Below, in pieces: positions 1,147 through 21,065 of a stretch of DNA of 32,665 bases. Position 1 is the first letter of the stretch; each line of letters begins with the position of its first letter. Source of the stretch: Actinomycetota bacterium (GTDB lineage Bacteria > Actinomycetota > Thermoleophilia > Solirubrobacterales > Thermoleophilaceae). Location of the stretch: the NCBI GenBank assembly GCA_005885165.1, contig VAXR01000070.1, positions 1 to 32,665 of the forward strand. The letters are read 5' to 3'. The notes under the pieces are model-generated. The model did not search any database. It saw only the letters and a list, made by a program, of their open reading frames with translations, and was not told where the DNA came from. A program made the position numbers and the translations under genes.

Positions 1147-1980
1147 ATGGCCGATGCCGGCCTATTCGGTCCCGAAACGATGACCTGGCGCGTGAACCGC
1201 GAGGGCGTGCTGCTCTTGGGCGGAGGGCGGGCGCTGATCCTCCAGGTCGCCCATCCGCTCGTCGCTGCCGGCGTGGCCGAGCACTCGAACTACCGGGAGG
1301 ATCCCTGGGGCCGGCTCTACCGGACGCTCGACCTCACGACGAAGATCGTGTTCGGCAGCACGCACACGGCGAGGGAGGCGTCGGAGCGCATCTGGCGCGT
1401 CCACGGGCGGGTGCACGGCGAGACGGCGGAGCCGGGTGGCCGCTACCCGGCGGGCACGCCGTACGACGCCCGCTCGCCGGAGCTCCTGATGTGGGTCCAC
1501 GCCACGCTCGTCGACACCTCGCTGCTCATATACACGCGCTATGTCGGATCGCTGACGATCGCCGAGCGGAACCGCTACTACGACGAGCAGAAGCTGCTCG
1601 GTGAGCAGTTCGGGGTCCCGCGCGACGAGCAGCCGAGGACGTTCGCGGACTTCAACGCCTACGTCCAGGAGATGCTCGAGAGCGACCGCATCGCCGTGAC
1701 CGACGCCCTGCGCGACGTTGTCGACGCCACGCTCCGGCCCGAGCTGCCGATCGTCGCGCGCCCGCTCGTCAGCGCGATGAACCTCGTCACCGTTGGGCTG
1801 CTCCCAGACCGGCTTCGCCGGGATCTCGGCGTGCCGTGGGGCACCGGCCGCAGCCGCCTTTTCGAGGCCTCCCGCCTGATGATGAGCGGGATCCTCCCGG
1901 TCCTTCCGCGCGTGATGCGCGATTTCCCGCCTGCCCGCAGCGCCGACCGGCGGGTGCGGCGGCTCGCCGCGGCGGCCTAG
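1147..1980 (+). CDS. DUF2236 / MpaB-family oxygenase-like protein
   Basis: 277 residues. The start MADAGLFGPETMTWRVNREG matches the usual beginning of the ER-bound oxygenase MpaB / rubber-oxygenase catalytic-domain family (DUF2236); upstream ATGs at 1117 and 1126 would add unrelated residues. Family hallmarks seen are ILQVAHP (about 31-37), GVAEHS (42-47), RIWRVHGRVHGE (81-92) and LLMWVHATLVDT (113-124). Histidines in the QVAHP and WVHAT motifs are the expected haem-region residues, known from the rubber oxygenase Lcp. Members are all-alpha, putatively haem-binding redox enzymes; the substrate is unknown. Length fits the short bacterial members. The preceding TACGAT ends seven bases before ATG, so the mRNA may be leaderless. 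It lies directly upstream of the mce block, where YrbE permease genes would normally be expected. Confidence 0.85.
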   Translation: MADAGLFGPETMTWRVNREGVLLLGGGRALILQVAHPLVAAGVAEHSNYREDPWGRLYRTLDLTTKIVFGSTHTAREASERIWRVHGRVHGETAEPGGRYPAGTPYDARSPELLMWVHATLVDTSLLIYTRYVGSLTIAERNRYYDEQKLLGEQFGVPRDEQPRTFADFNAYVQEMLESDRIAVTDALRDVVDATLRPELPIVARPLVSAMNLVTVGLLPDRLRRDLGVPWGTGRSRLFEASRLMMSGILPVLPRVMRDFPPARSADRRVRRLAAAA

Positions 1981-2021: not shown

Positions 2022-2058
2022 TAGCTTCGGGCGGGCACTGAGCGGTTCACGGGAGGAG
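2022..2058 (+). promoter_or_regulatory. Promoter and strong Shine-Dalgarno of the mce operon
   Basis: A TAGCTT hexamer (2022-2027, within CCTATAGCTTCGG) lies about 35 bases before the first mce start. A strong GGGAGGAG (2051-2058) sits four bases before TTG 2063 and decides that unusual TTG start. Unlike most genes here, this one has a short leader. Confidence 0.5.
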
Positions 2059-2062
2059 TCGC

Positions 2063-3367
2063 TTGCCGGTCGGTAGGGCGCCCCAGATCGCGCGGCGCCT
2101 GCTCACCGCTGGGGCGATCGCCCTGGCGATCTTGGTCGTCGCGCTGCTCATCTTCGGATCGGGCCCGTCCTACAGCGTCCACGCGACGCTCGACAACGCG
2201 AGCCAGCTGATCGCGGGGGACCAGGTGAAGGTGGGCGGCGTGCCGGTCGGATCGGTCGACGACATCACGCTCGATTCCCACGGACGCGCGCGGCTCACCC
2301 TCTCGATCGACGACTCGTCGCTCGTGCCGCTTCACCGCCCGAGCCAGGTCGAGGTGCGCTCCGTGGGGCTCGCGAGCATCGCGGGCCGCTACGTAACGCT
2401 CACGCCGGGGCCGAGGAACGGCCCGAAGATCAGGAACGGCGGGGAGATCGGCGCCGACAACGCCCAATCCGAGGTCGACCTCGACGAGGTGCTGAACTCG
2501 CTCGACCCGGGGACGCTCGGCGACCTGCGGGCCGCGATCCGGGGCCTCAGCAGGACCAGCGGCGGCCAGGCCCCGCAGGAGTTCAACGCGGCGCTGCACG
2601 ACCTCAACCCCGCGCTCTCGCAGACTGCGGCGACGGCTGCCGAGATCGTCCGGGACCAGCCGCGATTCGAGCGCTTCCAGCGGCTCGTCCCCGCGACCGG
2701 CCAGACGCTGTCCGCGATCGCCTCGCAGACCGCGGCGCTCGACGACTCGCTGCGCAGGTTCCCCTCCACCTTGCGCGAGGCCAACACGACGCTCGTGAAC
2801 CTCCGGAGCACGATCGCCGACGTCCGCCCGGCCGTTCGCGAGGCGCGTCCGGTCGCCCCGCTCCTGAACGAGTTCCTCACGCGCCTGCAGCCGGTTGCCG
2901 AGCAGGGGGTCGAGGTGGTGCCGGCCCTGCGGGCCCTGATCGACAGCCCGGGCCCGCTCGACCTGCTCGGCGTGCTGCGCACGCTGCCGTCGCTCGAGAG
3001 CGTGGCCGTGCCGGCGTTCGCGTCGGGCGTGAAGACGACAAAGCTCGGACTGCCGATCCTCGACGAGCTGCGCCCCTACACGCCCGACTTCTTCGGTGGC
3101 CAGATCAACGGCTTCGGCGGCACGACGAGCACGTACTACGACGCCAACGGCCGCTACGCCCGGATCTCGTTCGAGGGAAGCGGCTACACGCTCAACAACC
3201 AAGGCACGCTCGTGCCCCTGCCACCCTCGCAGCCGGGCCTCACCGGCTACCGCAAGGGGCTCCTGCGCCGCTGCCCGGGTGCTGCGACGCAGACCGCGCC
3301 CGACAAGTCGAACCCCTGGCTGCCGCGGCCGAACTTCCCGTGCCGGCTGGCGGACTCGCCGCGATGA
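2063..3367 (+). CDS. MCE (MlaD-domain) family protein 1
   Basis: 434 residues from a TTG start fixed by a GGGAGGAG ribosome site. One N-terminal membrane anchor (about residues 14-32) is followed by the MCE/MlaD beta-barrel domain (about 37-116, with VKVGGVPVGSV and the closing VEVRSVGLASIAGRYVTL). A long helical region then carries repeated Leu/Ala-rich segments (about 140-300), and a C-terminal domain ends with Cys and Pro (NPWLPRPNFPC). MCE proteins form periplasmic hexameric rings or tubes that carry lipids for an ATP-driven importer (Mce1/Mce4 in mycobacteria, Mla in proteobacteria). Being first of six, it sits in the mceA position, but I cannot assign letters by sequence. Its stop overlaps the next ATG by four bases. 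Confidence 0.9.
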   Translation: MPVGRAPQIARRLLTAGAIALAILVVALLIFGSGPSYSVHATLDNASQLIAGDQVKVGGVPVGSVDDITLDSHGRARLTLSIDDSSLVPLHRPSQVEVRSVGLASIAGRYVTLTPGPRNGPKIRNGGEIGADNAQSEVDLDEVLNSLDPGTLGDLRAAIRGLSRTSGGQAPQEFNAALHDLNPALSQTAATAAEIVRDQPRFERFQRLVPATGQTLSAIASQTAALDDSLRRFPSTLREANTTLVNLRSTIADVRPAVREARPVAPLLNEFLTRLQPVAEQGVEVVPALRALIDSPGPLDLLGVLRTLPSLESVAVPAFASGVKTTKLGLPILDELRPYTPDFFGGQINGFGGTTSTYYDANGRYARISFEGSGYTLNNQGTLVPLPPSQPGLTGYRKGLLRRCPGAATQTAPDKSNPWLPRPNFPCRLADSPR

Positions 3368-4794
3368 AGCGCCTCCTCGCGATCGCGGTTGCCGGGCTCG
3401 CCGCCTTGGTGGCCGTTTTGCTGACTATCGGGGCCGGCGGCGGCTCGGGCGACTACCGCGTCGACGCGATCTTCGACAGCGCGGACTTCCTGATCTCGGG
3501 CCAGGACGTGAAGGTGGCCGGAGCGCGCGTCGGCCAGGTGACCAAGGTCGCGCTCACGAACGATCGCAAGGCGCGCATCGAGATGCAGATCGTGCCCGGC
3601 TTCGCCCCCTTCCGGGCCAACGCCAGCTGCTCGATCCGCCCGGCGAGCCTGATCGGCGAGAAGTTCGTGCAGTGCGATCCGGGGACGCCCGATGCGGCCC
3701 CGCTCACGGCGCCGCACGGGCGCGCGCCGACCGTCCCGATCTCGCACAACCACTCCCCGGTGGACCTGGACCTCGTGTTCACGGCGCTGAGGCAGCCGAT
3801 TCGCGAGCGGCTCTCGATCATCATCAGCGAGCTGGGTGCCGGTCTGGCGGGTCACCCGGCCGAGCTGAGCGCCGCGATCCGCCGGGCGAACCCCGCGCTC
3901 GAGCAGGCGAACCGCACGCTGGCGATCCTCGACTCGGAGCGATCCACGCTCGGGCGGCTGATCGACTCGTCCGACACCGTCCTCCGCGAGCTCGCGGCCA
4001 GGAGCGGCGACGTGGGCGGGTTCATCGCGCATGCGAGCCACGTGAGCGACACCGTGGCCTCGCGCACGGGCGACCTCGCGCTGGCGATCCACCGCCTCCC
4101 GCCTCTCCTCGCGCAGCTCGAGCCGGCCTCGGAGGAGCTCGGGGGCTTCGCCACCGACGCTCGGCCGGTCGTGCGCGCGCTGGGCGCCGCGGCGCCGCAG
4201 CTTCGCGACGTCCTGGGCGACCTTCCCCCGCTCGAGGCAGCGGCGCGTCCCACCCTCGTCAAGCTCTCGGCGCTTTCCGCGGCCGGACTGCACGCGGTGC
4301 GCGAGACCCAGCCACTGGCCGACCTGCTCGATCCCGTCTCGCGCAAGCTGCCGCCCGCCGTCGCGCTCGTAAAGGGCCTGGTCGACTCGCTGATCGCACG
4401 CGGGGTCCCGGAGGGGATCGGGCGCTTCGTGTGGCTCTCGGTGGCGGCGACGGGGCGCTTCGACCAGATCTCGCACGTGCTCCCGTCATACCAGCTAGGG
4501 GGTACGTGCAACACGTACGCGACGACCCCGACGGCGGGCTGCTCGGCCCACTTCAGCGGCGTGGGGAAGGGCGCGCCGAACAACGGCGGAAGCACGGCGG
4601 CGGGGGCGCCGGCCGGCGGGGGAACCGCCGGTTCCGCGAGTGGCGCCCGCGACAACCGCACCCCGGCCGAGCGCCGGAGGGATCGCCGGCTCGCGCAGCA
4701 GGCCGCCCAATCTGCTGCGCACAGCATCCCGGGAACGCACGCGCCGCCGGTGCCCAACCCGGGCAACCTCCTCAACTGGCTGCTGCCGCCATGA
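3364..4794 (+). CDS. MCE (MlaD-domain) family protein 2
   Basis: 476 residues starting at the ATG that overlaps the previous stop (ATGA). An anchor helix (about 4-22) is followed by the MlaD domain (about 31-107; VKVAGARVGQVTKVAL, SLIGEKFVQC). The helical body contains LIDSSDTVLRELAARSGDV, a pattern shared with proteins 5 and 6 of the cluster. After about residue 400 the C-terminus turns into a Gly/Ala/Ser-rich, then basic, low-complexity stretch (APAGGGTAGSASGARDNRT), ending with a Pro-rich NLLNWLLPP. Cysteines cluster at GGTCNTYATTPTAGC, which is common before the tails of actinobacterial Mce proteins. Expected role is one subunit of a hetero-hexameric lipid-transfer ring outside the membrane. 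Confidence 0.9.
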   Translation: MKRLLAIAVAGLAALVAVLLTIGAGGGSGDYRVDAIFDSADFLISGQDVKVAGARVGQVTKVALTNDRKARIEMQIVPGFAPFRANASCSIRPASLIGEKFVQCDPGTPDAAPLTAPHGRAPTVPISHNHSPVDLDLVFTALRQPIRERLSIIISELGAGLAGHPAELSAAIRRANPALEQANRTLAILDSERSTLGRLIDSSDTVLRELAARSGDVGGFIAHASHVSDTVASRTGDLALAIHRLPPLLAQLEPASEELGGFATDARPVVRALGAAAPQLRDVLGDLPPLEAAARPTLVKLSALSAAGLHAVRETQPLADLLDPVSRKLPPAVALVKGLVDSLIARGVPEGIGRFVWLSVAATGRFDQISHVLPSYQLGGTCNTYATTPTAGCSAHFSGVGKGAPNNGGSTAAGAPAGGGTAGSASGARDNRTPAERRRDRRLAQQAAQSAAHSIPGTHAPPVPNPGNLLNWLLPP

Positions 4795-6173
4795 GCCGAC
4801 GTTCGCAGCCAAGCATCGCGGGTTCGCCGATCCTGATCGGCGCCGTGACCGTGCTGGTCACGGTCGTCGCGGTGCTCCTCTCCTACAACGCGAACTCGGG
4901 CCTGCCGTTCGTCCCGACCTACCACATCAAGGCCGAGGTGCCGGACGCCGCGGGCCTCATCGAGGGCAACGAGGTTCGCATCGGCGGCAAGCGCGTAGGG
5001 ACGATCGACGGCATCACCGGCAAGGTCGGCCCGCACGCGCCGTACGCCGTGCTCGCGCTGAAGCTCGACAAGACCGTCCAGCCGTTGCGCGACGACTCCC
5101 AGCTCACGGTCCGCCCGCGATCGCCGCTCGGGCTCAAGTACCTCGAGCTCGTTCCCGGCCGGCACGGCCGCCCGCTGAACGAGGGCGGGAAGCTCTCTCT
5201 CGTCCACGCGCGGCGGAGCGTGGAGCTCGACGAGGTGATCAACACCTTCGACGCCCAGACCCGCGCCGCGATTCAGCGCACGACGTTCGAGTTCGGAACC
5301 GGCCTGGCCGGTAGGGGGATCGACTTCAACCGCTCGCTCGCGTCGGCGCCCGTGCTGCTCCTCCATCTCGAGCACGTCGCCGCGACGCTCGCGGACCCGC
5401 GCACCGGCTTGCGGCAGACGCTCCGTGCGGTGGCTGCCGTGGCCGGTCAGCTCGCACAGGTGAGCCCGCAGCTCGGCTCGCTCTTCACGGCGGCGGACCG
5501 CACGTTCGCGGCGCTCGACTCGGTGCGGCCGGCCATCGCCGCTACGCTGGACGAGCTTCCGGGCACCGAGCTCACCGCGATCACCGCGCTGGCTGCCGCG
5601 CGACCGGTGCTCCACGATGCGCGCGGCCTGGTGCACGACCTGCGCCCTGGGATCGGCGTCCTGCCGCTCGCCGCGGGCCGCCTGCACCTGGCGCTCCAGC
5701 GCGGGATCCCGGTGCTCGGCCACGCAGGTCCGCTGTACGACCGGGTGCGCTCGGCGCTCGACGCCCTCGAGGCGCTCGCGGCGGATCCGCTGGTCAGGAG
5801 CGCGGTGAGGCGGCTCAACGTGGCGCTCGAGTCGGCGATACCGACGGTGCGCTTCGTCGCTCCGGCGCAGATCCGCTGCAACTACCTCGGGGTGTACCTG
5901 CGCAACGAGGCGTCCACGATCGCCGAAGGCGACGACGCCGGAACCTGGCTCCGGACGCTGACGATCTCCCAGACCAACCAGTTCCACGCGCGGTCGTCGC
6001 CGTCGCCCGACCTGCATACGAACCCCTACCCGTACACCGCGGCGCCCGGCCAGCACGGACTGTGCGAGGCCGGCAACGAGCCGTACCTGCCGGGGCAGCG
6101 GTTCGGCCACGTCCCCGGAGTGACCGCCCACTACACAGAGGACACGTCGCCTCCGCCGGGGGTGGGCCGGTGA
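4791..6173 (+). CDS. MCE (MlaD-domain) family protein 3
   Basis: 460 residues; ATG overlaps the previous stop by four bases. The anchor is at about 12-32. The MlaD domain is at about 44-123, with VRIGGKRVGTIDGI and SPLGLKYLELVPG. A His/Arg-rich turn then leads to SVELDEVINTFD, the conserved junction also present in cluster members 1 and 6 (xELDEVxxxLD). The C-terminal domain carries IRCNYLGVYLRNEAS and a Tyr/Pro/Asn-rich end (TNPYPYTAAPGQHGLCEAG). Translationally coupled within the operon. A much longer ORF in this frame starts at 3096 inside genes 1 and 2; it is an artefact of GC bias. Confidence 0.9.
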   Translation: MSRRSQPSIAGSPILIGAVTVLVTVVAVLLSYNANSGLPFVPTYHIKAEVPDAAGLIEGNEVRIGGKRVGTIDGITGKVGPHAPYAVLALKLDKTVQPLRDDSQLTVRPRSPLGLKYLELVPGRHGRPLNEGGKLSLVHARRSVELDEVINTFDAQTRAAIQRTTFEFGTGLAGRGIDFNRSLASAPVLLLHLEHVAATLADPRTGLRQTLRAVAAVAGQLAQVSPQLGSLFTAADRTFAALDSVRPAIAATLDELPGTELTAITALAAARPVLHDARGLVHDLRPGIGVLPLAAGRLHLALQRGIPVLGHAGPLYDRVRSALDALEALAADPLVRSAVRRLNVALESAIPTVRFVAPAQIRCNYLGVYLRNEASTIAEGDDAGTWLRTLTISQTNQFHARSSPSPDLHTNPYPYTAAPGQHGLCEAGNEPYLPGQRFGHVPGVTAHYTEDTSPPPGVGR

Positions 6174-7573
6174 GCTGGTGGGATCGCATCCGAGGCCGGC
6201 GGACGCCGATCACCGCGTTCCGGGCGGGGCTCATCACCATCGCCCTCACGACGATCGCGGTCTACTTCGCGTTCGGCGGCGCGCTGCCGTGGCAGAGCAG
6301 CTTCCAGCTCCGCGCGGTGGTGACCTCGGCCAACCAGCTGCACTCCCGCACGCCCGTGCGGATCGCCGGGATCGACGTCGGCCACGTGGAGTCGATCAAG
6401 CGCGGGCCCGGCCGCTTCGCCACCGTGACGATGGCGCTGCAGGACCGCGCGCTCCCGATCCACGCCGACGCCACGCTGAAGGTCCGCCCGCGCATCTTCC
6501 TGGAGGGCAACTTCTTCATCGACCTCCAGCAGGGGACGCCCGCGGCGCGGACGGTCGGCTCGGGCTACGAGATCCCGCTCTCGCAGACGGCGGTCCCGGT
6601 CCAGCTCGACCAGGTCCTCGACGTGCTGCGCCGCGGCACCCGCGACAACCTGGTCTCGCTCGTCCACGAGGTCGCCGCCGCCCTCGACCACGGCGGGGGC
6701 GACGCGATCCGCGAGTCACTCCAGTACTGGGAGCCGACCTTCCGCAACGGCGCGATCGCGGCTGAGGCGTTTCGCGGTGAGCACGCGCACGATCTCTCGG
6801 GGTCGATTGCCGGCCTCGAGCGGATCGCGGGCGCGCTGGCACGCCACCGCACGCAGCTGGCCTCGCTGATCTCCGGGCTGGACGCGACGGTGGAGGCGCT
6901 GGCGTCACAGCGGTCGGCGCTCGCTCAGTCCGTCCCCGAGTTCGACACGTTGCTGCGCGAGGCCGAACCCACCTTCGTCACGCTGAACGACCTCTTCCCG
7001 ACCGCCCGGGCGTTCGTCCGCGAGGCGCGGCCGGGCATACGCGCCGCGCCCGCGACGCTCGAGGTCGCGAACCCGCTGCTTGCGCAGCTCGAGGGCCTCC
7101 TCTCGCCGTCCGAGCTCCCGCAGCTCGTGGACGTCGGCACCCCCGCGATCCGCACGCTCGCCCGCGCCCAGCCGCATCTGCGGACGATCCTGAAGCTGCT
7201 GACGCCGGTCACGGAGTGCCTGCGCCGCGACGTCGTCCCCACGCTGAAGACGCCCGTCCAGGATCCGCCGCACACCACCGGCGATCCGCCCTACCGCGAG
7301 CTGCTGCACGCCTGGATCGGCCTGGCGAGCCTGTCGCAGAACTTCACGGGCGACGGGCCCTCCGTCCGCTACCACGCCGGGTTCGGCGACCAGACCATCC
7401 TCACCGGCAACATCCCGAGCGAGGGGCAGCCGCTCGTCGGGCTCACGCAGACCAAGCTCCTCGGCTCGCGGCCGCGCTACACGGGCGTGCAGCCGCCGCT
7501 CAAGCCGAAGGCCCCCTGCTCGAAGCAGAAGCGGCCCAACCTCCACGCCGAGACCGGGCCAGCGGAGCAGTAG
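6170..7573 (+). CDS. MCE (MlaD-domain) family protein 4
   Basis: 467 residues from a GTG that overlaps the previous stop (GTGA). The N-terminus is MSWWDRIRGRRTPITAFRAG, with the anchor helix about 19-36. The MlaD domain is about 45-122 (VRIAGIDVGHVESIKRG and the FLEGNFFIDL strand). A helical body follows, then a C-terminal region with SPSELPQLVDVGTPAIRTL and a basic, Pro-rich tail. The SELPxLVxxxxP segment recurs among actinobacterial Mce proteins. Same inferred role as its neighbours. Confidence 0.9.
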   Translation: MSWWDRIRGRRTPITAFRAGLITIALTTIAVYFAFGGALPWQSSFQLRAVVTSANQLHSRTPVRIAGIDVGHVESIKRGPGRFATVTMALQDRALPIHADATLKVRPRIFLEGNFFIDLQQGTPAARTVGSGYEIPLSQTAVPVQLDQVLDVLRRGTRDNLVSLVHEVAAALDHGGGDAIRESLQYWEPTFRNGAIAAEAFRGEHAHDLSGSIAGLERIAGALARHRTQLASLISGLDATVEALASQRSALAQSVPEFDTLLREAEPTFVTLNDLFPTARAFVREARPGIRAAPATLEVANPLLAQLEGLLSPSELPQLVDVGTPAIRTLARAQPHLRTILKLLTPVTECLRRDVVPTLKTPVQDPPHTTGDPPYRELLHAWIGLASLSQNFTGDGPSVRYHAGFGDQTILTGNIPSEGQPLVGLTQTKLLGSRPRYTGVQPPLKPKAPCSKQKRPNLHAETGPAEQ

Positions 7574-7575
7574 AC

Positions 7576-8994
7576 GTGCTGAGCCTCCGCAGAATCGCGC
7601 GGCAGTACCTCCAGCACCTCATGGCGCTCGCCGCGATGGTGGGGTTGGCCCTGGCGGTGACGGTCTACGTGACCGTCCACGAGCGCCTCCGCTTCCCGTG
7701 GCAGCACGAAACGCGCATCTACGCCGAGTTCCAGAACGCCCAGTCGGTGACGCCCGGGCAGGGGCAGACCGTGGACGTGGCGGGCGTGCAGGTCGGCGAG
7801 ATCGGCGGCGTCACGCTGAAGGACGGGCGCGCGGTCGTGGAGCTCGACATCGAGTCGCACGTGCCGGGCGGCATGTTCCGCAACGCGCACCTGCAGCTGC
7901 GCCCGAAGACCGGCCTCAACGACATGGCGATCGAGATGGACCCGGGCCGGCCCGACCCGTCGCTGCCGGACAAGGGCCGCCTGCACGACGGGGATCACCT
8001 GCCGATCGAGAACACGCGGCCGAACGTGAACTCCGACGAGGTGCTGGCCGCGCTGGACGCCGACACACGGCAGTACCTGGCGGCGTTCGTGGACGCCGGC
8101 GGCCAGGGGCTGCGCGGGCGGGGGGCCGACCTCCGCCGCGTGCTGCAGGCCAGCCAGCCGACGTTCGCGCGGTCCGCACGGATCGGGCGGGCGGTGGCCG
8201 ACCGGCGCGCGAAGGTGCGGCGGCTCGTGACCAACCTAAAGCGCCTGGCGTTCGCCGCGGCGGTCAAGGACAAGGAGCTCGGCCGTCTGGTCGACTCCTC
8301 GTCGGCGATCTTCGGGACGATCGCGAGCCGCGACGCGGACCTCCGGGCGGCGGTCAGCCGCCTTCCGGGCGCGCTGCACGCGACCAGCAGCGCGCTGGCC
8401 GCCACGCGCGGGCTTGCGCTCGACGCACGGCCCGCTCTCAGCGCGTTGATCCCCGTGGCAGACGAGCTGACGCCGGCGCTCGTTCGCTCGCGGCCGCTGC
8501 TGCGCGACGCGACGCCGGTCATCGCCAACGGGGTGCGCCCACTGGTCCGCGCCGCGATCCCGCTGCTCCGCAAGCTCGGCCCCGAGCTCGCGCGGGTCGA
8601 CACCACGACGCCGGGGCTCGTGGACGCGGGACACGCACTGAACCACGTGGTGAACGAGCTCGCCTACAACCCGCCGGGCAAGGAGGAGGGCTACCTCTTC
8701 TGGCTTCCCTGGTTCGTGCACAACTCGAACTCGGTCGTCTCGATCGAGGACGCACACGGGGCCGCGTTCCGCGGACTCGTGCTCTTCGGCTGCTCGAGCG
8801 TTCCCTCAGTCCTCGCCGCCAACCCTGCGCTCCTCCCGTTCTTCCAGCTCCCGCTGTGCCCGAAGCACCCGAGCCCGCCGCGCGCGCAGCCCGGCACGCC
8901 CGACCAGATCCGGCGCACGATCGAGCGCTGGGCGCGCGGGCTGACGGCGCACCGCAAGGGCGCTCAGGCGCGGGCGAAGGGGGTGCATCGCTAG
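7576..8994 (+). CDS. MCE (MlaD-domain) family protein 5
   Basis: 472 residues; GTG start two bases after the previous stop. The anchor helix is about 16-34. The MlaD domain is about 47-124 (VDVAGVQVGEIGGVTL; LRPKTGLNDMAIEMDPG). Next comes RPNVNSDEVLAALDADTRQY, then a helical body with ELGRLVDSSSAIFGTIASRD, closely matching the equivalent part of protein 6 and so pointing to tandem duplication. The C-terminal domain has EEGYLFWLPWFVHNSNSVVS and a Cys pair (FGCSS..LPLCPKHP). Basic tail. In the periplasm, part of the presumed hexamer. Confidence 0.9.
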   Translation: MLSLRRIARQYLQHLMALAAMVGLALAVTVYVTVHERLRFPWQHETRIYAEFQNAQSVTPGQGQTVDVAGVQVGEIGGVTLKDGRAVVELDIESHVPGGMFRNAHLQLRPKTGLNDMAIEMDPGRPDPSLPDKGRLHDGDHLPIENTRPNVNSDEVLAALDADTRQYLAAFVDAGGQGLRGRGADLRRVLQASQPTFARSARIGRAVADRRAKVRRLVTNLKRLAFAAAVKDKELGRLVDSSSAIFGTIASRDADLRAAVSRLPGALHATSSALAATRGLALDARPALSALIPVADELTPALVRSRPLLRDATPVIANGVRPLVRAAIPLLRKLGPELARVDTTTPGLVDAGHALNHVVNELAYNPPGKEEGYLFWLPWFVHNSNSVVSIEDAHGAAFRGLVLFGCSSVPSVLAANPALLPFFQLPLCPKHPSPPRAQPGTPDQIRRTIERWARGLTAHRKGAQARAKGVHR

Positions 8995-10392
8995 ATGACG
9001 AAGCGCCCGCCCTCCCTCGTCCAGATCGCGGTGATGGTCGCCTTCGCGCTGTCGTGCCTCGGAATCCTCCTGTACGTCTGGCAGTCGTTCGGCGGCCAGA
9101 TCCCGCTCGCGCCGAAGGGGTACCGCGTGGTGGCCGGCTTCAACGAGGCGACGACGCTCTCGGACACCGCCGAGGTGCGGATCTCGGGCGTCCGGGTCGG
9201 CCGCGTCGTTTTGCTGTCCGAGCACGGTGGCCGGACCCAGGCGACGATGCAGATCGACCCGCGCTACGCGCCGATCGCGCGCGACACACGGGCGATCCTG
9301 CGGCTGAAGACGCTGCTCGGCGAGACCTACATCGAGCTGACGCCGGGCGACCGCCGTTCCGGCCTCCTGCCGGACGGCGGCAGGATCCCGAACACGCAAA
9401 TAGGGAGCACGACCGAGCTCGACGAGGTGACCCGCGCGCTCGACGCGCGCACGCGCCGCGATCTCCAGCACTTCCTGCACGGCCTCGCGGTCGGGCTCGC
9501 CGGCAGGGGTCAGGACCTGAACGACGCGCTGGGGAACCTCCCACCGTTCACCGACAGCACCACCGCGCTGCTCCGGGCGCTCGACTCCCAGGACCGCGCG
9601 GTGCGGAAGCTCGTCTCCGACAGCGGCGTGGTCTTCGGCGCGCTCGGTCGCCGCCAGGGCGAGCTAGCCGGGCTGATCCAGGCCGGCGACCGCGTCCTGT
9701 CGACGACGGCGGCCCGCGATCGCGACCTCGCCGAGACCGCGCGGATCCTCCCCGTCACGCTCGCGGAGCTGAGGCCCACGCTCGAGCAGGTGCGCCTCCT
9801 GTCGGGCGAGGCCGCGCCGGTCGTTCACGACCTGCGCCCAGGCGCCCGCGCGCTGGCCCCGGCGCTTCAGGACATCGCCGTGCTGTCGCCCCAGCTATAC
9901 GGCCTCTTCGGCGACGTCGACAAGGTGATCGCGGCATCGAAGCGGGGCGCGCCCGCCCTGACCGCGGTCGTTCGCGCCGCGCATCCGGCGCTGCGGCTCC
10001 TGGTCCCGCTCCTGCGCGAGGCGCAGCCGGTCGTGGACTACCTCGGCCTCTACAAGGAGGAGCTCGTCTCCCAGATCGCCGGCGTGGCAGCGGCGACTCA
10101 GGCGTCGGCGCCGGTGGGCACGGGCCAGTCGCTTCATTACGCGCGAGTGATCGTGCCGTTCACGGCGGAGGGCGCGGCCGCCCAGTACAAGCGCCTCACG
10201 ACCAACCGGCACAACCCGTACTTCCTCCCGCTGGCGCTGAACCGGCTGAAGCAGGCGCTCCTTTCCTTCGACTGCTCGAACGTGAAGAACGGCAACCCCG
10301 GCTTCGAGCAGGCGCCCCCGTGCCTCGTTCAGCCGCCATTGCACTTCCGCGGACGCGCCACCGCCTACCCGCACGTGCACAAGGACAAGTAG
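8995..10392 (+). CDS. MCE (MlaD-domain) family protein 6
   Basis: 465 residues; ATG immediately abuts the stop of protein 5. The anchor is about 9-29. The MlaD domain is about 43-118 (VRISGVRVGRVVLLSEHG; LKTLLGETYIELTPG). TTELDEVTRALDARTRRDL follows, then a helical body with VRKLVSDSGVVFGALGRRQ, and a C-terminal domain containing NRHNPYFLPLALNRLKQ and two Cys. This is the last gene of the block; nine bases separate its stop from the convergent kinase. No YrbE permease, MceG-like ATPase or Mas protein follows, so the transporter's other parts must be encoded elsewhere. Confidence 0.9.
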   Translation: MTKRPPSLVQIAVMVAFALSCLGILLYVWQSFGGQIPLAPKGYRVVAGFNEATTLSDTAEVRISGVRVGRVVLLSEHGGRTQATMQIDPRYAPIARDTRAILRLKTLLGETYIELTPGDRRSGLLPDGGRIPNTQIGSTTELDEVTRALDARTRRDLQHFLHGLAVGLAGRGQDLNDALGNLPPFTDSTTALLRALDSQDRAVRKLVSDSGVVFGALGRRQGELAGLIQAGDRVLSTTAARDRDLAETARILPVTLAELRPTLEQVRLLSGEAAPVVHDLRPGARALAPALQDIAVLSPQLYGLFGDVDKVIAASKRGAPALTAVVRAAHPALRLLVPLLREAQPVVDYLGLYKEELVSQIAGVAAATQASAPVGTGQSLHYARVIVPFTAEGAAAQYKRLTTNRHNPYFLPLALNRLKQALLSFDCSNVKNGNPGFEQAPPCLVQPPLHFRGRATAYPHVHKDK

Positions 10393-10401
10393 CGGCCGTG
10401 G

Positions 10402-11331
10402 CTAGGCGCTCGGCACCTCCGCCAGTGCCGTGATCGACCGGAACTCCTCGTAGCGCCTCGCTATGTCCTCCCGTTCGAGGCGCTCCATGCGCTCGGTGCC
10501 GAAGCCCTCGACGTTGAACGACGCGAGCACGGAGCCGTAGGTCATCGCGCGCCTCAGCTCGTCCTCGTCGTCCGGCGCGCCCTCCGGGCGGGACGCCATG
10601 TAGCCCATGAAGCCGCCGGCGAACGAGTCGCCCGCGCCGGTGGGATCCACCACGGTCTCGAGCGGGTACGCCGGCAGCGAGAAGAACCGGTCGCCCGTGA
10701 ACAGCGCGGCGCCGTACTCGCCCTGCTTCGCCACCACGGCGCGCGGCCCCACGCCGAGCAGCTGCCGCGCCGCGCGGACGAGGTTGGGCTGCTCGGTGAC
10801 CATGCGCACCTCGGCGTCGTTCATGAATACGAGGTCGACCTCGGCGATCGCCTGAAGGAGGGAATCGCGCGCGGTCTCGATCCAGAGGTTCATCGAGTCG
10901 AGGCCCACGAGCCGCGCGCGGTCGCACTGAGCGCGCACCGCGCGCTGGAGCTCCGGCTGGATGTTCGCCAGGAAGAGCATGCCTGCCGCCCGCGACTCGT
11001 CGGAGAGCTTCGGCTCGAAGCCCCCGAACACGCCCAGTTGGGTGTCCTCCGTGTGCGCGGTGTTCAGGTCGTACTCGTAGCGGCCGCGCCAGTGGAAGGT
11101 CTGCCCGCCCGGCACGTGCTCCACGTCGCTCGTGTCGATCGCGCGGGCGTGCAGGACGGCGTACTCGGCCTCGCCGAAGTCGTCGCCGACCGGCCCGACG
11201 ACCCGCACGTCGCTGAAGAAGCTCGCGGCGAGCGCGAAGTGCACCGCCGACCCTCCGAGCATCCGCTCGCGCTCCCCGAACGGCGTGCGCACGGAGTCGA
11301 ACGCGATTGAACCGACCACCACGAGGCTCAC
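10402..11331 (-). CDS. PfkB-family carbohydrate kinase
   Basis: 309 residues with GTG start (MSLVVVGSIAFDSV). Ribokinase/PfkB fold: N-terminal VVGSIAFD, substrate-side GGSAVHFALAAS (26-37) and the C-terminal signature VDPTGAGDSFAGGF (228-241), whose Asp235 is the catalytic base and GAGD forms the anion hole. It phosphorylates a sugar or nucleoside with ATP in the cytoplasm. The substrate is not clear; the GGSAVHFA motif and length fit the unassigned sugar-kinase group annotated in actinobacteria rather than classical RbsK. Minus-strand TAGCCT (11346-11341) lies nine bases before the GTG, with no Shine-Dalgarno. Divergent from the quinone oxidoreductase. Confidence 0.88.
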   Translation of the reverse strand: MSLVVVGSIAFDSVRTPFGERERMLGGSAVHFALAASFFSDVRVVGPVGDDFGEAEYAVLHARAIDTSDVEHVPGGQTFHWRGRYEYDLNTAHTEDTQLGVFGGFEPKLSDESRAAGMLFLANIQPELQRAVRAQCDRARLVGLDSMNLWIETARDSLLQAIAEVDLVFMNDAEVRMVTEQPNLVRAARQLLGVGPRAVVAKQGEYGAALFTGDRFFSLPAYPLETVVDPTGAGDSFAGGFMGYMASRPEGAPDDEDELRRAMTYGSVLASFNVEGFGTERMERLEREDIARRYEEFRSITALAEVPSA

Positions 11332-16592: not shown

Positions 16593-18515
16593 ATGAAGCG
16601 ATCAGTTCGCCGTGCCGTTCAGACCCTTCTCATGTCGGGCTTCGTGCTCGCCACCGCTCTGGCGCTGGCCCCGAATGCGCTCGCGGCCGGATCGCCGCCC
16701 GCCGGCGGCGCCGCGATCGGCCAGGTGATCGCCGCAACGCTCGGCGCGACCGTCGCGACCTTCGCTCTCCTGTGGGTGATCTCCGCCCACCGCAGCGGGC
16801 GGATCGCGTGGTTGGGGCGGCTGGCCGGCCTGGGAGAGCGCCTCACCGGGCTTCCGGGCTGGGCCTCGATCCCCGCGTCGGTCCTCGGGGGGAGCCTGCT
16901 GATCGCGGTGTTCGGGATGTACTGGGACATCTCGCTTCACCTCGACAATGGCCGCGACCCCGGACCGCTGGCCAATCCCGCCCACTACTTCATCCTCGTC
17001 GGCCTCTTCGGCGTATTCGCGTGCGGCGCTCTGACCCTGGCGCTTGCCGACTCGAAGCCGAGCAACGTCGCGAAACGACTCACCACCGAGTGGTGGGCGC
17101 CGCTCGGCGGCATCCTGATCCTGGTCTGCTCGGCGGTCTCGCTGCTGGCGTTCCCGCTCGACGACATCTGGCATCGCCTGTTCGGCCAGGACGTGACCCT
17201 CTGGGGTCCGACCCACCTGCTGCTCTTCGGCGGCGCGAGCTTCTCGATCATCGGGCTCTGGGTGCTGCAGGTCGAGGGGGCGAAGGAGCACGGGCACTCA
17301 CCGCTCGCCACCACGCGGCTCCAGCGTTTCCGCGACCTCAGCCTCGCGGGCAGCCTGCTCGTCGGCATGTCCACCTTCCAGGGGGAGTTCGACTTCGGCG
17401 TTCCCCAGTTCCGTCTCGTGTGGCAGCCGGTCCTGATCGCGCTTGCTGCGGGTATCGCGCTGGTCACCGCCCGCGTGCGCCTGGGCCGCGGTGGTGCGTT
17501 CGCCGGCGTCGCGTTCTTCCTCGCCCTGCGCGGGTTCCTGGCCCTGATGGTCGGCCCGATCCTCGGGCAGACGACCCCGCACTTCCCGCTCTACATCGCC
17601 GAGGCGGCGTGCGTCGAGCTCGTCGGCCTCCGCATTGGCCGGCGCCGGCCGATCGCGCTCGGAGCCGTCTCCGGCCTCCTGATCGGGACGGTCGGATTCG
17701 CGGCCGAGTACGGCTGGTCGCACGTCTGGAGCTACAACCCCTGGCCGCCGTCGCTGCTTTCAGAGGCGATCCCGGTTGCGATCGTCGCCGGGCTCGCGGG
17801 CGGTGTCCTCGGAGGCTTCGTCGGCAGGTCGCTGACGCCGGCGGCCGCGGGGGAGCGCGCGCCGCGCTGGGCGGTCCCCGCCGCCGCCGCGGCCGTTGTC
17901 GGCCTCGTGGCGTGGTGCCTGCCTATGCCCGTCCCCGCGCATCCGCCGAGCGCGACGATCGCCTTGCACAACGTGCCCGGTGCGGGCCCGACGCGCAAGG
18001 TCGCGGCCACGATCCGCCTGCATCCGCCGGACGCGGCGAAGAACGCGCGCTGGCTCACCGTCACCGCGTGGCAGGGCCACGGCGCCGTCGTCGACCGGCT
18101 GAAGAAGATCGGGCCGGGCGTCTACCGCACCGCGCACGAGATCCCGGTGTCGGGACCGAAGTGGAAGTCGACGCTCCGGCTGCAGAGAGGGCGCGAAGTG
18201 CTCGGGCTTCCGATCTACATGCCCGCCGATTCCGCGATCCCGGTGAAGGGGATCCCCGCGCTCGCGCACTTCACCCGCCCGTTCGAGCGGGACCAGAAGC
18301 TCCTCCAGCGGGAGCAGAAGCCGGGTGTCTCCCCGATCCTGACCACCGCTGCGTATCTCGTGGTGCTGGCGGTGGGGCTCGCCGTGATCGCGCTGCTGGC
18401 CTGGGGCCTGCGGCGGATCTCCGCCGAGATCGGCACGCTGCCACCGCGGCCGCGGCGACGGGAGGCAGCTCGCGTCGCACCGGCCGCGGGTGGACCGCGC
18501 GTGGGCGCCGCGTAA
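16593..18515 (+). CDS. Large polytopic membrane protein with repeated Asp/His/Pro motifs and periplasmic domain
   Basis: 640 residues. A signal-like first helix ends ALAAG (about 32), followed by about twelve hydrophobic helices and a final one near residues 585-605. Two loops carry the same pattern, D-x3-H-x3-G-x-D-x(5-6)-P-x-H: residues 112-131 (DISLHLDNGRD..NPAH) and 190-208 (DDIWHRLFGQD..GPTH). Weaker echoes lie at 265-280 (EFDFGVPQF..WQP) and 372-386 (EYGWSHVWS..PWPP). Between the last helices is an extracytoplasmic beta domain (about 450-580) with GPGVYRTAHEIPVSGPKWK, resembling FixH/YtkA-type Ig-like domains. The His/Asp pattern suggests metal binding; the reaction is unknown. ATG 16593 is preferred over GTG 16587 because the ribosome site is correctly spaced. 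First gene of a five-gene run. Confidence 0.8.
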   Translation: MKRSVRRAVQTLLMSGFVLATALALAPNALAAGSPPAGGAAIGQVIAATLGATVATFALLWVISAHRSGRIAWLGRLAGLGERLTGLPGWASIPASVLGGSLLIAVFGMYWDISLHLDNGRDPGPLANPAHYFILVGLFGVFACGALTLALADSKPSNVAKRLTTEWWAPLGGILILVCSAVSLLAFPLDDIWHRLFGQDVTLWGPTHLLLFGGASFSIIGLWVLQVEGAKEHGHSPLATTRLQRFRDLSLAGSLLVGMSTFQGEFDFGVPQFRLVWQPVLIALAAGIALVTARVRLGRGGAFAGVAFFLALRGFLALMVGPILGQTTPHFPLYIAEAACVELVGLRIGRRRPIALGAVSGLLIGTVGFAAEYGWSHVWSYNPWPPSLLSEAIPVAIVAGLAGGVLGGFVGRSLTPAAAGERAPRWAVPAAAAAVVGLVAWCLPMPVPAHPPSATIALHNVPGAGPTRKVAATIRLHPPDAAKNARWLTVTAWQGHGAVVDRLKKIGPGVYRTAHEIPVSGPKWKSTLRLQRGREVLGLPIYMPADSAIPVKGIPALAHFTRPFERDQKLLQREQKPGVSPILTTAAYLVVLAVGLAVIALLAWGLRRISAEIGTLPPRPRRREAARVAPAAGGPRVGAA

Positions 18516-18518
18516 TAC
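18513..18518 (+). promoter_or_regulatory. Internal leaderless-type -10
   Basis: TAATAC overlaps the stop of the preceding gene (TAA 18513-18515) and ends ten bases before GTG 18529. It may give the second gene its own transcript. Confidence 0.35.
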
Positions 18519-18528
18519 CCTCGTGGGC

Positions 18529-19116
18529 GTGGCCCGGCACTGGAAGCTGCGAGCCGGCACCCTCCTTGCGGCGGGCGCGTACGGGCTGCACCAGCTGCGC
18601 TACCTGCTCGCGTACGGGAGCGACTCCCACCATGAGCTCGCGTCCCAGGGCCACGCCTACCTGACTTTCGTCGCCCCGCTCCTCGCGGTGCTGGTCGTGC
18701 TGTCCGTGCTGGAGCTGGTCCTTCGGATCGCGGGCGCCCGAACGGAGGTCGGCCACCCGCGTGCGCCACGCCTCCGCGTGCTGTGGAGTGCAGCCGCCGC
18801 CGCGCTGCTGGGCTCTTACTCGGCTCAGGAGCTCGTCGAGGGCGCCGTGAGCCGCGGCCACGCCGCCGGGCTTGCGGGCGTCTTCGCCCACGGTGGATGG
18901 GTGGCGATCCCGCTCGCGATCGTCCTGGGTCTCTTCGTCGCGCTGCTGCTCCGCGGCGCCGCGCGCGTGCTCGAGCTTGCCTCCGAGGCCCAGCTCAGAA
19001 TCGCACCGCCGCAGCCGTTCCTCCCGATCCGCCGGTCGCGACGCGCATGCGCCGAGGCCGGCTCCGTCCTCGCCCGCCACATCGGCGGCCGCGGCCCTCC
19101 GCTCCCCTCCGTCTAG
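18529..19116 (+). CDS. Four-span membrane protein with His-rich loop
   Basis: 195 residues from GTG 18529 (alternative GTG 18523, two residues longer; the upstream TAATAC favours 18529). Helices are near residues 8-24, 43-66, 84-101 and 117-140. The first extracytoplasmic stretch has GLHQLRYLLAYGSDSHHEL and QGHAYL, with several His that could bind metal or haem; a later loop has AQELVEGAVSRGHAAG. The last 50 residues are basic, Pro-rich and probably cytoplasmic. No named family is recognised. Position between the Asp/His polytopic protein and the cupredoxin lipoprotein suggests it belongs to the same complex. Confidence 0.75.
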   Translation: MARHWKLRAGTLLAAGAYGLHQLRYLLAYGSDSHHELASQGHAYLTFVAPLLAVLVVLSVLELVLRIAGARTEVGHPRAPRLRVLWSAAAAALLGSYSAQELVEGAVSRGHAAGLAGVFAHGGWVAIPLAIVLGLFVALLLRGAARVLELASEAQLRIAPPQPFLPIRRSRRACAEAGSVLARHIGGRGPPLPSV

Positions 19117-19537: not shown

Positions 19538-20919
19538 AACGCCGGCGGGCGGCCGCGGCCGTCGCGCTCGTGACCGTCGCCGCGGCGGGCATCTGGCCCG
19601 CCGCGGCACTCGCCCACGGGCTCGTCGGACGGGCCGACCTGCCGATCCCGCCCTACCTGTTCGGCTGGGCGGCGTCGATCGTGCTCGTCGTGTCGTTCAT
19701 TGCCCTGGCCGCTCTGTGGAAGCAGCCCCGGCTCGAGGACGCGCGTGAGCGGCGGATCTTCGACATGCCGCGAATGGTCGACCCGCTCTGCGGGCTCATC
19801 GGCGTCGCGCTCTTCGGCATCGCGATCTACGCCGGGCTCGACGGGACGAAGGAGTCGAACCAGAACCTGCTCCCGAACCTCGTGTACGTGCACTTCTGGG
19901 TCGGGTTTGTGCTGGCGAGCGTGATCCTCGGCGACGTGTTCCGGGTGTTCAACCCGTGGCGTGCGATCGCGCGGGCCGTCGGCTGGGTGTCAGGCAGGCT
20001 CGGGATCCGGTCGCCCCTGAGGCGCGAATACCCGGAGAAGCTCGCGTGGCTCGAGCTCGTTTACACGCAGAAGGCCAACCCCCGGATCCTGGTCTGGATC
20101 TCGATCGGGTATGCGGTCGTCCAGCTGGCGGCGATGGCCGTCTACGGAGTGGAGCGGTGGACGCAGGACGGCGACGCGTTCTCCGTCTACTTCAACCTCT
20201 TCAGCCGGATCTCGGTGTTCGTGAAGCGCGGCCGCACGGTCTACCTGAGGCCGCTCCTATCGGGCGTCACCGACATGCCGCTGAAGCCGGGCTCGGTCGC
20301 ACTGCTGTGCGCGGCCATTGGATCGACCACGTTCGACGGGGCCTCGAACGGGCCCCTGTGGGCTTCGCTGAACCCGGACCTCCAGAGCTTCTTCAAGACT
20401 CTCGGGGCGTCTGCGAACGTGAAGATCGAGCTCGCCGGGACGGTGGGCCTGGCGGCCTGCGTGGCCGCGGTCGGGCTCTTCTACCACCTCGGCGTGCGCG
20501 GGATGCGGACGGTGGGCCGAGGGCACACCACGAGGGAGCTGGCCCGGCGCTTCGCGCACACGCTCGTGCCGATCATGTTCGCGTACGCGCTGGCGCACTA
20601 CTTCTCGCTGCTGATCTATCAGGGCCAGGCGGCCGGGTACCTGGCCTCCAACCCACTCGGCAACGGGAGCAACCTGTTCGGGACGGCGCACTGGGGTATC
20701 AACTACGGGGTGATCTCGGGCGCCGGCATCTGGTACGTGCAGGTTGGGGCGCTGATCGCCGGGCACGTGAGCGGGCTGACGCTCGCCCACGACCGCGCGC
20801 TCACCGTCTACCAGCGCCTTCGCGACGCGACCCGCTCGCAATACTGGATGCTGGTGGTGATGGTCGGTTTCACGAGCCTCGGGCTCTGGCTCCTGTCGGC
20901 GGTGCGCGGCGCCGGATGA
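19534..20919 (+). CDS. Polytopic membrane protein, possible mature N-terminal His
   Basis: 461 residues from a GTG overlapping the cupredoxin stop. The first helix looks like a cleavable signal peptide ending AAALA, before H28 (HGLVGRADLPIPPYLF). If cleaved there, the mature chain would begin with His, as in copper histidine-brace proteins. About ten helices follow, with conserved-looking loops (FRVFNPWRAI; SSTYFDG-like GSTTFDGASNGPLW; YALAHYFSLLIYQGQ; LFGTAHWGINYG). I recall close relatives being labelled 'fenitrothion hydrolase' in actinobacterial genomes, a transferred name I would not trust as function. Coupled translation ties it to the cupredoxin lipoprotein and to the 49-residue protein that follows. 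Confidence 0.8.
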   Translation: MKRRRAAAAVALVTVAAAGIWPAAALAHGLVGRADLPIPPYLFGWAASIVLVVSFIALAALWKQPRLEDARERRIFDMPRMVDPLCGLIGVALFGIAIYAGLDGTKESNQNLLPNLVYVHFWVGFVLASVILGDVFRVFNPWRAIARAVGWVSGRLGIRSPLRREYPEKLAWLELVYTQKANPRILVWISIGYAVVQLAAMAVYGVERWTQDGDAFSVYFNLFSRISVFVKRGRTVYLRPLLSGVTDMPLKPGSVALLCAAIGSTTFDGASNGPLWASLNPDLQSFFKTLGASANVKIELAGTVGLAACVAAVGLFYHLGVRGMRTVGRGHTTRELARRFAHTLVPIMFAYALAHYFSLLIYQGQAAGYLASNPLGNGSNLFGTAHWGINYGVISGAGIWYVQVGALIAGHVSGLTLAHDRALTVYQRLRDATRSQYWMLVVMVGFTSLGLWLLSAVRGAG

Positions 20920-21065
20920 TGACGCCTCCGATCGCGCACTTCGGGCACTGGTACATCTCGCTGCCGGTGTTCATGGGCCCGGTCGTCGCGCTGTTCGGCT
21001 ACATCTACCTGCAGGAATGGCGCAACAAGCGCCGCGAGCGAAAGAAGTCGAAGAAGGGGGCCTGA
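20916..21065 (+). CDS. 49-residue single-span membrane protein
   Basis: Starts at an ATG overlapping the previous stop (ATGATGA), giving MMTPPIAHFGHWYISLPVFM. One helix (about 13-31, through VVALFGYIYLQ) ends in a highly basic tail (EWRNKRRERKKSKKGA) that would stay in the cytoplasm. Two His and a Trp precede the helix (HFGHW). Too short for a catalytic domain; likely an accessory subunit of the preceding membrane protein. The four-base overlap and the membrane-protein composition argue it is real. Confidence 0.65.
   Translation: MMTPPIAHFGHWYISLPVFMGPVVALFGYIYLQEWRNKRRERKKSKKGA

What the first reader, a model, noticed from the sequence alone, without database searches (positions are those of the whole stretch)
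2063..10392. Six-gene mce operon without YrbE permease genes
Actinobacterial mce operons normally begin with yrbEA-yrbEB followed by mceA-F. Here six MlaD-domain genes are present and intact but the upstream neighbour is a DUF2236 gene with its own promoter, and the downstream one is a convergent kinase. Either the permease is encoded elsewhere or these rings work with a different partner. The first gene has its own promoter-like site and strong Shine-Dalgarno, so the block is a complete operon as it stands.
Basis: partly seen in the sequence, partly recalled or inferred. Interest (0 to 1): 0.5.

Follow-up and report, generated by a model that had tools for sequence, protein, structure and literature searches.

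The report
Mce gene cassette sharing distant permease
A set of six genes for a lipid-transport "needle" has no membrane pump of its own and most likely docks, together with other such sets, on one shared pump encoded elsewhere in the genome, an arrangement that turns out to be widespread in a large group of soil bacteria and that makes the interchangeability of these needles testable.

Summary
Window 2063-10392 holds six intact, overlapping mceA-F genes with no yrbE next to them, and the two same-genus genomes have the same layout. The permease is encoded elsewhere. This genome has one yrbEA-yrbEB-mceG "hub" on contig C113, with its own mceA-F, and a further, fragmentary mce set without yrbE.

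Across Solirubrobacterales this is a general pattern. MlaE and MlaD occur in the same 111 of 230 genomes, yet many mceA-F cassettes lie far from the only permease, including in a one-contig genome. The hub locus is yrbEA-yrbEB-mceG-[mceA-F]-MMPL. In eleven loci, from eleven genomes, the bracketed cassette is missing: ten have 74-495 bp between hub and MMPL, one 4.1 kb, against 8.7-9.8 kb otherwise.

The membrane-proximal part of MceC separates the classes. Orphan and hub-linked sets share an A-N-x-G-L-P-F-V-like motif; eight sets with their own YrbE lack it. There, window-type orphans resemble hub-linked MceC (73%) far more than their sister sets with own YrbE do (42%), although the distal needle is equally diverged.

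Best reading: interchangeable Mce needles on one shared permease. Docking is inferred. I found no earlier description of this architecture.

The parts
1147..1980 (+). MPAB/Lcp-type (DUF2236) putative haem oxygenase gene directly upstream, same strand; neighbour conserved only within the genus; co-transcription with mceA-F unknown
   Evidence: PF09995 E 2e-62; conserved upstream of mceA in G001 and G002, not seen upstream of the L040, L060 or L047 relatives
2047..2062 (+). ribosome-binding site of mceA (GGGAGGAG)
   Evidence: identical block in the three genomes of the genus
2063..3367 (+). mceA (TTG start), 434 aa, N-terminal membrane helix plus MCE domain
   Evidence: PF02470 E 1e-14; best match C113 mceA 36%
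3364..4794 (+). mceB, 476 aa, overlaps mceA stop by ATGA
   Evidence: PF02470 E 1e-11; best match C113 mceB 40%
4791..6173 (+). mceC, 460 aa, overlaps mceB stop by ATGA
   Evidence: PF02470 E 2e-11; best match C113 mceC 45%
4890..4913 (+). MceC residues 34-41, ANSGLPFV: membrane-proximal motif shared by hub-linked and orphan sets, absent from sets with their own YrbE
6170..7573 (+). mceD, 467 aa
   Evidence: PF02470 E 1e-9; best match C113 mceD 40%
7576..8994 (+). mceE, 472 aa
   Evidence: PF02470 E 3e-8; best match C113 mceE 41%
8995..10392 (+). mceF, 465 aa
   Evidence: PF02470 E 7e-16; best match C113 mceF 44%
10402..11331 (-). PfkB-family kinase, convergent; with the ADH and DEAD-box genes beyond it marks the conserved chromosomal site of the orphan cassette (not part of the system)
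   Evidence: PF00294; PfkB-ADH-DEAD next to mceF in G001, G002, G014:C10 and G219:C4

Best explanation
The window holds a complete 'orphan' mceA-F cassette. Its six proteins most likely assemble into a heterohexameric MCE ring and needle anchored by N-terminal helices, as in the mycobacterial Mce1 complex, and dock in trans on the single YrbEA/YrbEB permease and MceG ATPase encoded on contig C113, in competition with the mceA-F set encoded beside that permease and with a further orphan set. Needles with diverged outer parts would feed, or be fed by, one shared ATP-driven lipid pump. Shown here: gene content, order, intactness, purifying selection, a single hub in this and many related genomes, conserved unlinked layout, exact absence of the cassette from some hub loci, and retention of the hub-type membrane anchor in MceC and MceF. 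Inferred: ring assembly, docking, competition and lipid transport. Substrate and direction are unknown; a hydrophobic substrate handled by the neighbouring MPAB/Lcp-type oxygenase is only a suggestion.
For: (1) Own genome: the only MlaE pair is on C113, directly followed by mceG and a full mceA-F; PqiA is absent. (2) Relative G005 (one contig): its only YrbE pair with mceG and mceA-F at 1.76-1.77 Mb, a second mceA-F at 0.32-0.33 Mb. (3) G003, G018, G029, G035 and G141: yrbEA-yrbEB-mceG alone, their only mceA-F on another contig. (4) G219 (6 contigs): one solo hub, two orphan sets, one of window type beside PfkB-ADH-DEAD. (5) MlaE and MlaD occur in the same 111 of 230 genomes. (6) Hub locus with and without the cassette: hub-to-MMPL gap 8.7-9.8 kb in 35 loci, 74-495 bp in ten solo hubs and 4.1 kb in one; the MMPL gene is at none of the 51 orphan six-gene loci. 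(7) MceC anchor identity to hub-linked sets 0.73 for window-type orphans against 0.42 for sister sets with own YrbE; MceF 0.61 against 0.44; needle 0.34 vs 0.32 and 0.38 vs 0.33. (8) ANxGLPFV-like motif in 29/29 orphan and 12/12 readable hub-linked sets (one AT), 0/8 with own YrbE. (9) NG86 dN/dS about 0.17-0.30, as for the linked set of the same two genomes. (10) Exactly one MceG of at least 73% identity in each of 8 genomes, next ATPase at most 38%. (11) Precedent: orphan oMce1A competes with Mce1A for the same YrbE1AB.
Against: No physical or functional evidence. The window's genome is an incomplete draft (85%, 240 contigs), so a further hidden yrbE pair in it is not excluded. Some relatives (G028, G213) have many YrbE pairs, so one-hub sharing is not universal. 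The motif counts come from related sequences and are not independent; the extra loci L085-L164 were fetched with a pattern that contains part of the motif, so one search was limited to loci found without it, while the contrast still includes a few of them. The anchor comparison is by sequence only, with no complex model. Anchor conservation is clear in MceC and MceF but weak in A, B, D and E. MceB linker identity is lower in orphans.
Confidence: 0.8

Rival explanations
1. The orphan rings work without a YrbE permease, as PqiB and YebT do with PqiA/YebS-type membrane proteins, using another membrane partner or none.
For: No yrbE at the locus. Mce-type rings without MlaE are known in E. coli (own knowledge).
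Against: No PqiA in nine genomes. Mce genes never occur in a class genome of at least 90% completeness without MlaE. The MceC/MceF anchor stays hub-like in orphans although sister sets with own YrbE have lost it. No recurring membrane gene was noticed beside orphan sets, although flanks were not annotated exhaustively.
Confidence: 0.07
2. Subunits of the orphan set mix with those of other sets into hybrid rings on the hub, as oMce1A replaces Mce1A, so the cassette is a pool of alternative subunits rather than a separate needle.
For: Mycobacterial oMce1A precedent. Subunits are one-to-one orthologous by position.
Against: All six genes are kept together, in order, in every near relative with the whole stretch in hand. 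In genomes with a solo hub and one orphan set there is nothing to mix with (G003, G029).
Confidence: 0.08
3. A dedicated yrbE pair exists for this set but was lost from view through assembly gaps or a recent rearrangement.
For: The assembly is fragmented and 85% complete. Sister sets L037, L041 and L076 have a yrbE pair upstream.
Against: The MPAB-mceA-F-PfkB layout without yrbE is conserved in two further genomes of the genus, and the PfkB-ADH-DEAD flank in another genus and another family. Genome G002 (93% complete) has only one YrbE pair for about three mce sets.
Confidence: 0.05

Closest known systems
Actinobacterial mce operons (yrbEA-yrbEB-mceA-F; Mce1-Mce4 of Mycobacterium; Casali and Riley 2007, PMC1810536)
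   Same: Six MCE proteins A-F in the same order, one-to-one orthologous; a heterodimeric YrbE permease and one MceG per genome
   Different: That survey found mce genes almost always downstream of a yrbE pair and defined the operon as eight genes; here the six-gene cassette stands alone and the permease with its ATPase forms a separate, sometimes cassette-free locus
oMce1A (MSMEG_6540) of M. smegmatis (PMC10517005, PMC9882608)
   Same: An MCE protein without its own permease uses the YrbE1AB-MceG complex of another locus and competes with the resident subunit
   Different: One subunit there, all six here
MceG sharing in mycobacteria (PMC9947336, PMC10517005)
   Same: One ATPase serves several Mce systems in trans
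   Different: There each system keeps its own YrbE pair; here YrbE too appears shared
PqiB / YebT (LetB) systems of E. coli
   Same: MCE proteins without MlaE-type permease in the same operon
   Different: They come with PqiA/YebS-type partners, absent here
MlaDE homologues in monoderm Solirubrobacterales (PMC10665443)
   Same: The presence of several copies in this order was reported
   Different: That paper gives no function; the passages read do not mention the split of permease and cassettes

Membership tests
MCE/MlaD domain proteins (PF02470) | MlaD domain above the gathering score in each protein | tested here: met
   six of six, 34-59 bits against 25.1
Mycobacterial-type Mce paralogue family TIGR00996 | score above the curated cut-off of 140.5 bits | tested here: not met
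   85-128 bits with E 5e-24 to 3e-37: related but below cut-off
Actinobacterial mce operon (eight-gene definition) | two yrbE genes immediately upstream of mceA | tested here: not met
   MPAB gene 82 bp upstream; MlaE only on contig C113
Actinobacterial mce operon (eight-gene definition) | six mce genes A-F in order, each with N-terminal membrane anchor | tested here: met
Mce-type ABC transporter (YrbEAB-MceG-MceA-F) | physical complex of the six Mce proteins with YrbEAB and MceG | not testable with these tools
   indirect only: anchor and motif comparison
Mce-type ABC transporter (YrbEAB-MceG-MceA-F) | YrbE pair and MceG in the same genome | tested here: met
   C113
Pqi/Yeb-type MCE system | PqiA-family partner in the genome | tested here: not met
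   0 of 9 genomes; E. coli control positive

The most novel reading that the evidence does not exclude
Lipid transport in Solirubrobacterales is organised as one hub and many cassettes: a single YrbEAB-MceG pump, encoded at a conserved locus with an MMPL protein, accepts several complete, interchangeable Mce needles, and a membrane-proximal MceC motif (A-N-x-G-L-P-F-V) acts as docking code that separates hub clients from sets with their own permease.
Probability: 0.6. Interest if true: 0.7.

Novelty: new variant of a known kind. Interest (0 to 1): 0.55.

Why it matters
In well-studied Mce systems each six-protein needle is paired with its own YrbE permease; how needles and permeases recognise each other, and what the needle alone contributes to specificity, is open. 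Genomes in which one permease must serve several needles, and genomes in which the permease locus has lost its own needle genes and only a distant set remains, let both questions be asked by simple gene removals. They also give a natural contrast (hub clients against sets with own YrbE) that points to a short stretch of MceC, and less sharply MceF, as the docking surface. The pattern occurs across a large group of soil actinobacteria with cultured members.

Tried and rejected
Looked for a PqiA-type partner: none. Looked for a second MceG: none at the hub level in 8 genomes. Considered assembly artefact: rejected by conserved synteny in G001, G002, G014 and G219. Considered decay: rejected, all frames open and dN/dS like the linked set (NG86, synonymous sites fairly diverged). 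Promoter and terminator scan gave nothing useful (no promoter-like sites, three weak terminator-like sites against 2.1 expected). A first region-by-region anchor comparison misplaced the MceD helix because of an extended start and was redone. A tblastx synteny script ran into its time limit after the informative pairs; the result was then re-derived with the MMPL protein as marker. Paper searches for split or shared-permease mce systems found no description; the library lacks most subscription papers. No structure was predicted: only single chains can be folded here, which would not test docking.

Full report
OBSERVATION. The six genes at 2063-10392 are real and intact. All six products carry the MlaD/MCE domain above Pfam's gathering score and match mceA to mceF of the genome's other complete mce operon (contig C113) position by position at 36-45% identity, always better than any other subunit of that operon. 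The genes overlap or abut, so they are very likely one transcript. No MlaE homologue lies in the window; the upstream neighbour is an MPAB/Lcp (DUF2236) gene ending 82 bp before mceA, the downstream one a convergent PfkB kinase. The ribosome-binding site and start of mceA are conserved in the genus: TTG in the window and G002, GTG in G001. The claimed promoter was not found by a sigma-70 scan, which is weak evidence either way. The products score 85-128 bits against TIGR00996, below its 140.5 cut-off, so they are relatives rather than strict members of the mycobacterial model.

WHERE THE PERMEASE IS. The genome (2.66 Mb, 240 contigs, 85% complete) has exactly two MlaE genes in its assembly, side by side on C113, followed by an MlaF/MceG-type ATPase and a full mceA-F. 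A further mce set is split over short contigs: C154 carries the start of mceA, C118 the end of an mceA with mceB and C, C4 mceE and F. The gene before the mceA start on C154 is a divergent BrkB-type membrane protein, not a yrbE. That these three contigs form one set is inferred. This genome therefore has one permease pair, one MceG of this type and about three mce sets.

RELATIVES. An orthologous set without yrbE occurs in G007; in G014, of the same family, and in G219, of another family of the order, a window-type set sits beside the same PfkB-ADH-DEAD genes. In G005, assembled as one contig, the only YrbE pair with mceG and mceA-F lies at 1.76-1.77 Mb and a second mceA-F at 0.32-0.33 Mb; G019 has the same arrangement. 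G003, G018, G029, G035 and G141 have yrbEA-yrbEB-mceG alone and their only mceA-F on another contig. In the class (230 genomes, all of at least 90% completeness except the window's own) MlaE and MlaD occur in the same 111 genomes. Of 53 single-set genomes whose positions could be read from the tables, 27 have permease and mce genes within 13 kb and 26 have them on different contigs (in fragmented assemblies some of the latter could be contig breaks). Record titles place the relatives in Thermoleophilia, mostly Solirubrobacterales, including Solirubrobacter, Conexibacter, Paraconexibacter and Patulibacter.

A HUB LOCUS WITH AND WITHOUT ITS CASSETTE. A long MMPL-family gene (PF03176) follows mceF at linked loci. 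In 35 loci with hub, cassette and MMPL the distance from hub to MMPL is 8.7-9.8 kb, the length of mceA-F. In eleven loci with yrbEA-yrbEB-mceG but no mce genes the MMPL gene is still there: 74-495 bp after the hub in ten, 4.1 kb in one (L038). None of the 51 complete six-gene orphan loci has it. Flanking genes are collinear on both sides in several of the pairs examined. So the hub locus is the same place with the cassette missing, in several families. Loss rather than gain is the likelier direction because linked loci are spread over more lineages, but this was not formally tested. In these genomes permease and ATPase persist while the mce genes are elsewhere, as expected if the hub serves them.

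TREE. A concatenated MceA-F tree of the sets held at that point shows orphan sets in at least four or five separate places. The window type (window, L027, L029, L040, L060, with L047 and L068 nearby) groups with three sets that have a yrbE pair of their own but no mceG (L037, L041, L076); support inside this group is partly low (0.54-0.56), the group itself 0.97.

TEST OF THE DOCKING IDEA. In the Mce1 structure the helices of Mce1A, B, C and F surround the YrbE pair (PMC9882608). If orphans dock on the hub, their membrane-proximal parts should stay hub-like. The sister sets with own YrbE are the control. For MceC, identity to hub-linked sets over the helix and linker is 0.73 for window-type orphans and 0.42 for own-YrbE sets; for MceF 0.61 and 0.44. 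In the distal needle the two groups are nearly equally diverged (0.34 and 0.32; 0.38 and 0.33). An A-N-x-G-L-P-F-V/I motif follows the MceC helix in all 29 orphan sets with a readable MceC and in all 12 readable hub-linked sets (AT in one), and in none of the eight sets with own YrbE (only loci found without use of this motif). The sequences are related, so these counts are not independent, but orphan sets are polyphyletic and the window type's closest relatives are in the other class. Identity between orphan and linked sets also falls from base to tip relative to linked-linked identity in most subunits, as expected of needles with a common base and different tips; the MceB and MceE linkers are exceptions.

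OTHER SUPPORT. Hub YrbE is unusually conserved (mean identity 0.76-0.81 across linked and solo loci, against 0.58-0.60 among dedicated YrbE), while the linked Mce proteins average 0.44-0.52, compatible with a permease held constant by several clients. The orphan set evolves under purifying selection at about the same rate as the linked set between the same two genomes.

WHAT IS KNOWN. Mycobacteria share one MceG among systems and, in M. smegmatis, a single orphan subunit (oMce1A) competes with Mce1A for one YrbE1AB. Casali and Riley described mce genes as almost always downstream of a yrbE pair. A 2023 study noted several MlaDE copies in monoderm Solirubrobacterales, function unknown. Whole-cassette sharing of one permease was not found described in the library searched, which lacks most subscription papers.

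LIMITS. Docking, competition and transport are inferred. Substrate is unknown. The genome is an incomplete draft. In genomes with many YrbE pairs (G028, G213) sharing is not forced.

Noticed in passing
L145, L146, L147, L151, L156, L158, L160, L164, L170 (for example L145 4839-15800): A rearranged mce locus: mceB first, then about 2.5-3 kb, then mceA, C, D, E, F and an mceG-like ATPase at 50-62% identity, with no yrbE nearby; nine loci in Solirubrobacterales, one of them in a genome (G207) that also has a solo hub.
   Followed up: partly
L026 601-3267 (-), L033 11329-14154 (+), L045 10696-13353 (+): An MMPL-family (RND-type) protein is a regular neighbour of the yrbEA-yrbEB-mceG hub, with or without the cassette, and is absent from orphan mce loci; possibly part of the transport route.
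   Followed up: partly
window 1147-1980: MPAB/Lcp-type oxygenase gene directly upstream of mceA, same strand, kept in three genomes of the genus; members of this family cleave isoprenoid chains, so it may process what the transporter carries.
   Followed up: partly
L022, L023, L024 (contigs C4, C118, C154 of the same genome): Fragments of a further mce set, also without yrbE: the mceA start on C154 is preceded by a divergent BrkB-type membrane protein gene.
   Followed up: partly
L037, L041, L076, L139: mceA-F sets with a diverged yrbE pair of their own but no mceG beside them, an intermediate state that presumably borrows the hub ATPase.
   Followed up: partly
L080 6579-8150 and L166 864-2400: yrbEA-yrbEB pairs standing alone without mceG or mce genes in the stretch held; function unclear.
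   Followed up: no
genome G028 (one contig); L130 and L132 of Paraconexibacter antarcticus NZ_CP098502.1: Extreme expansion: 91 MlaD and 20 MlaE matches in G028; in P. antarcticus several sets, among them neighbouring ones without yrbE.
   Followed up: no
window 16772-18664 and 19956-21065 (+): Long open frames without any Pfam match; not established as genes.
   Followed up: no
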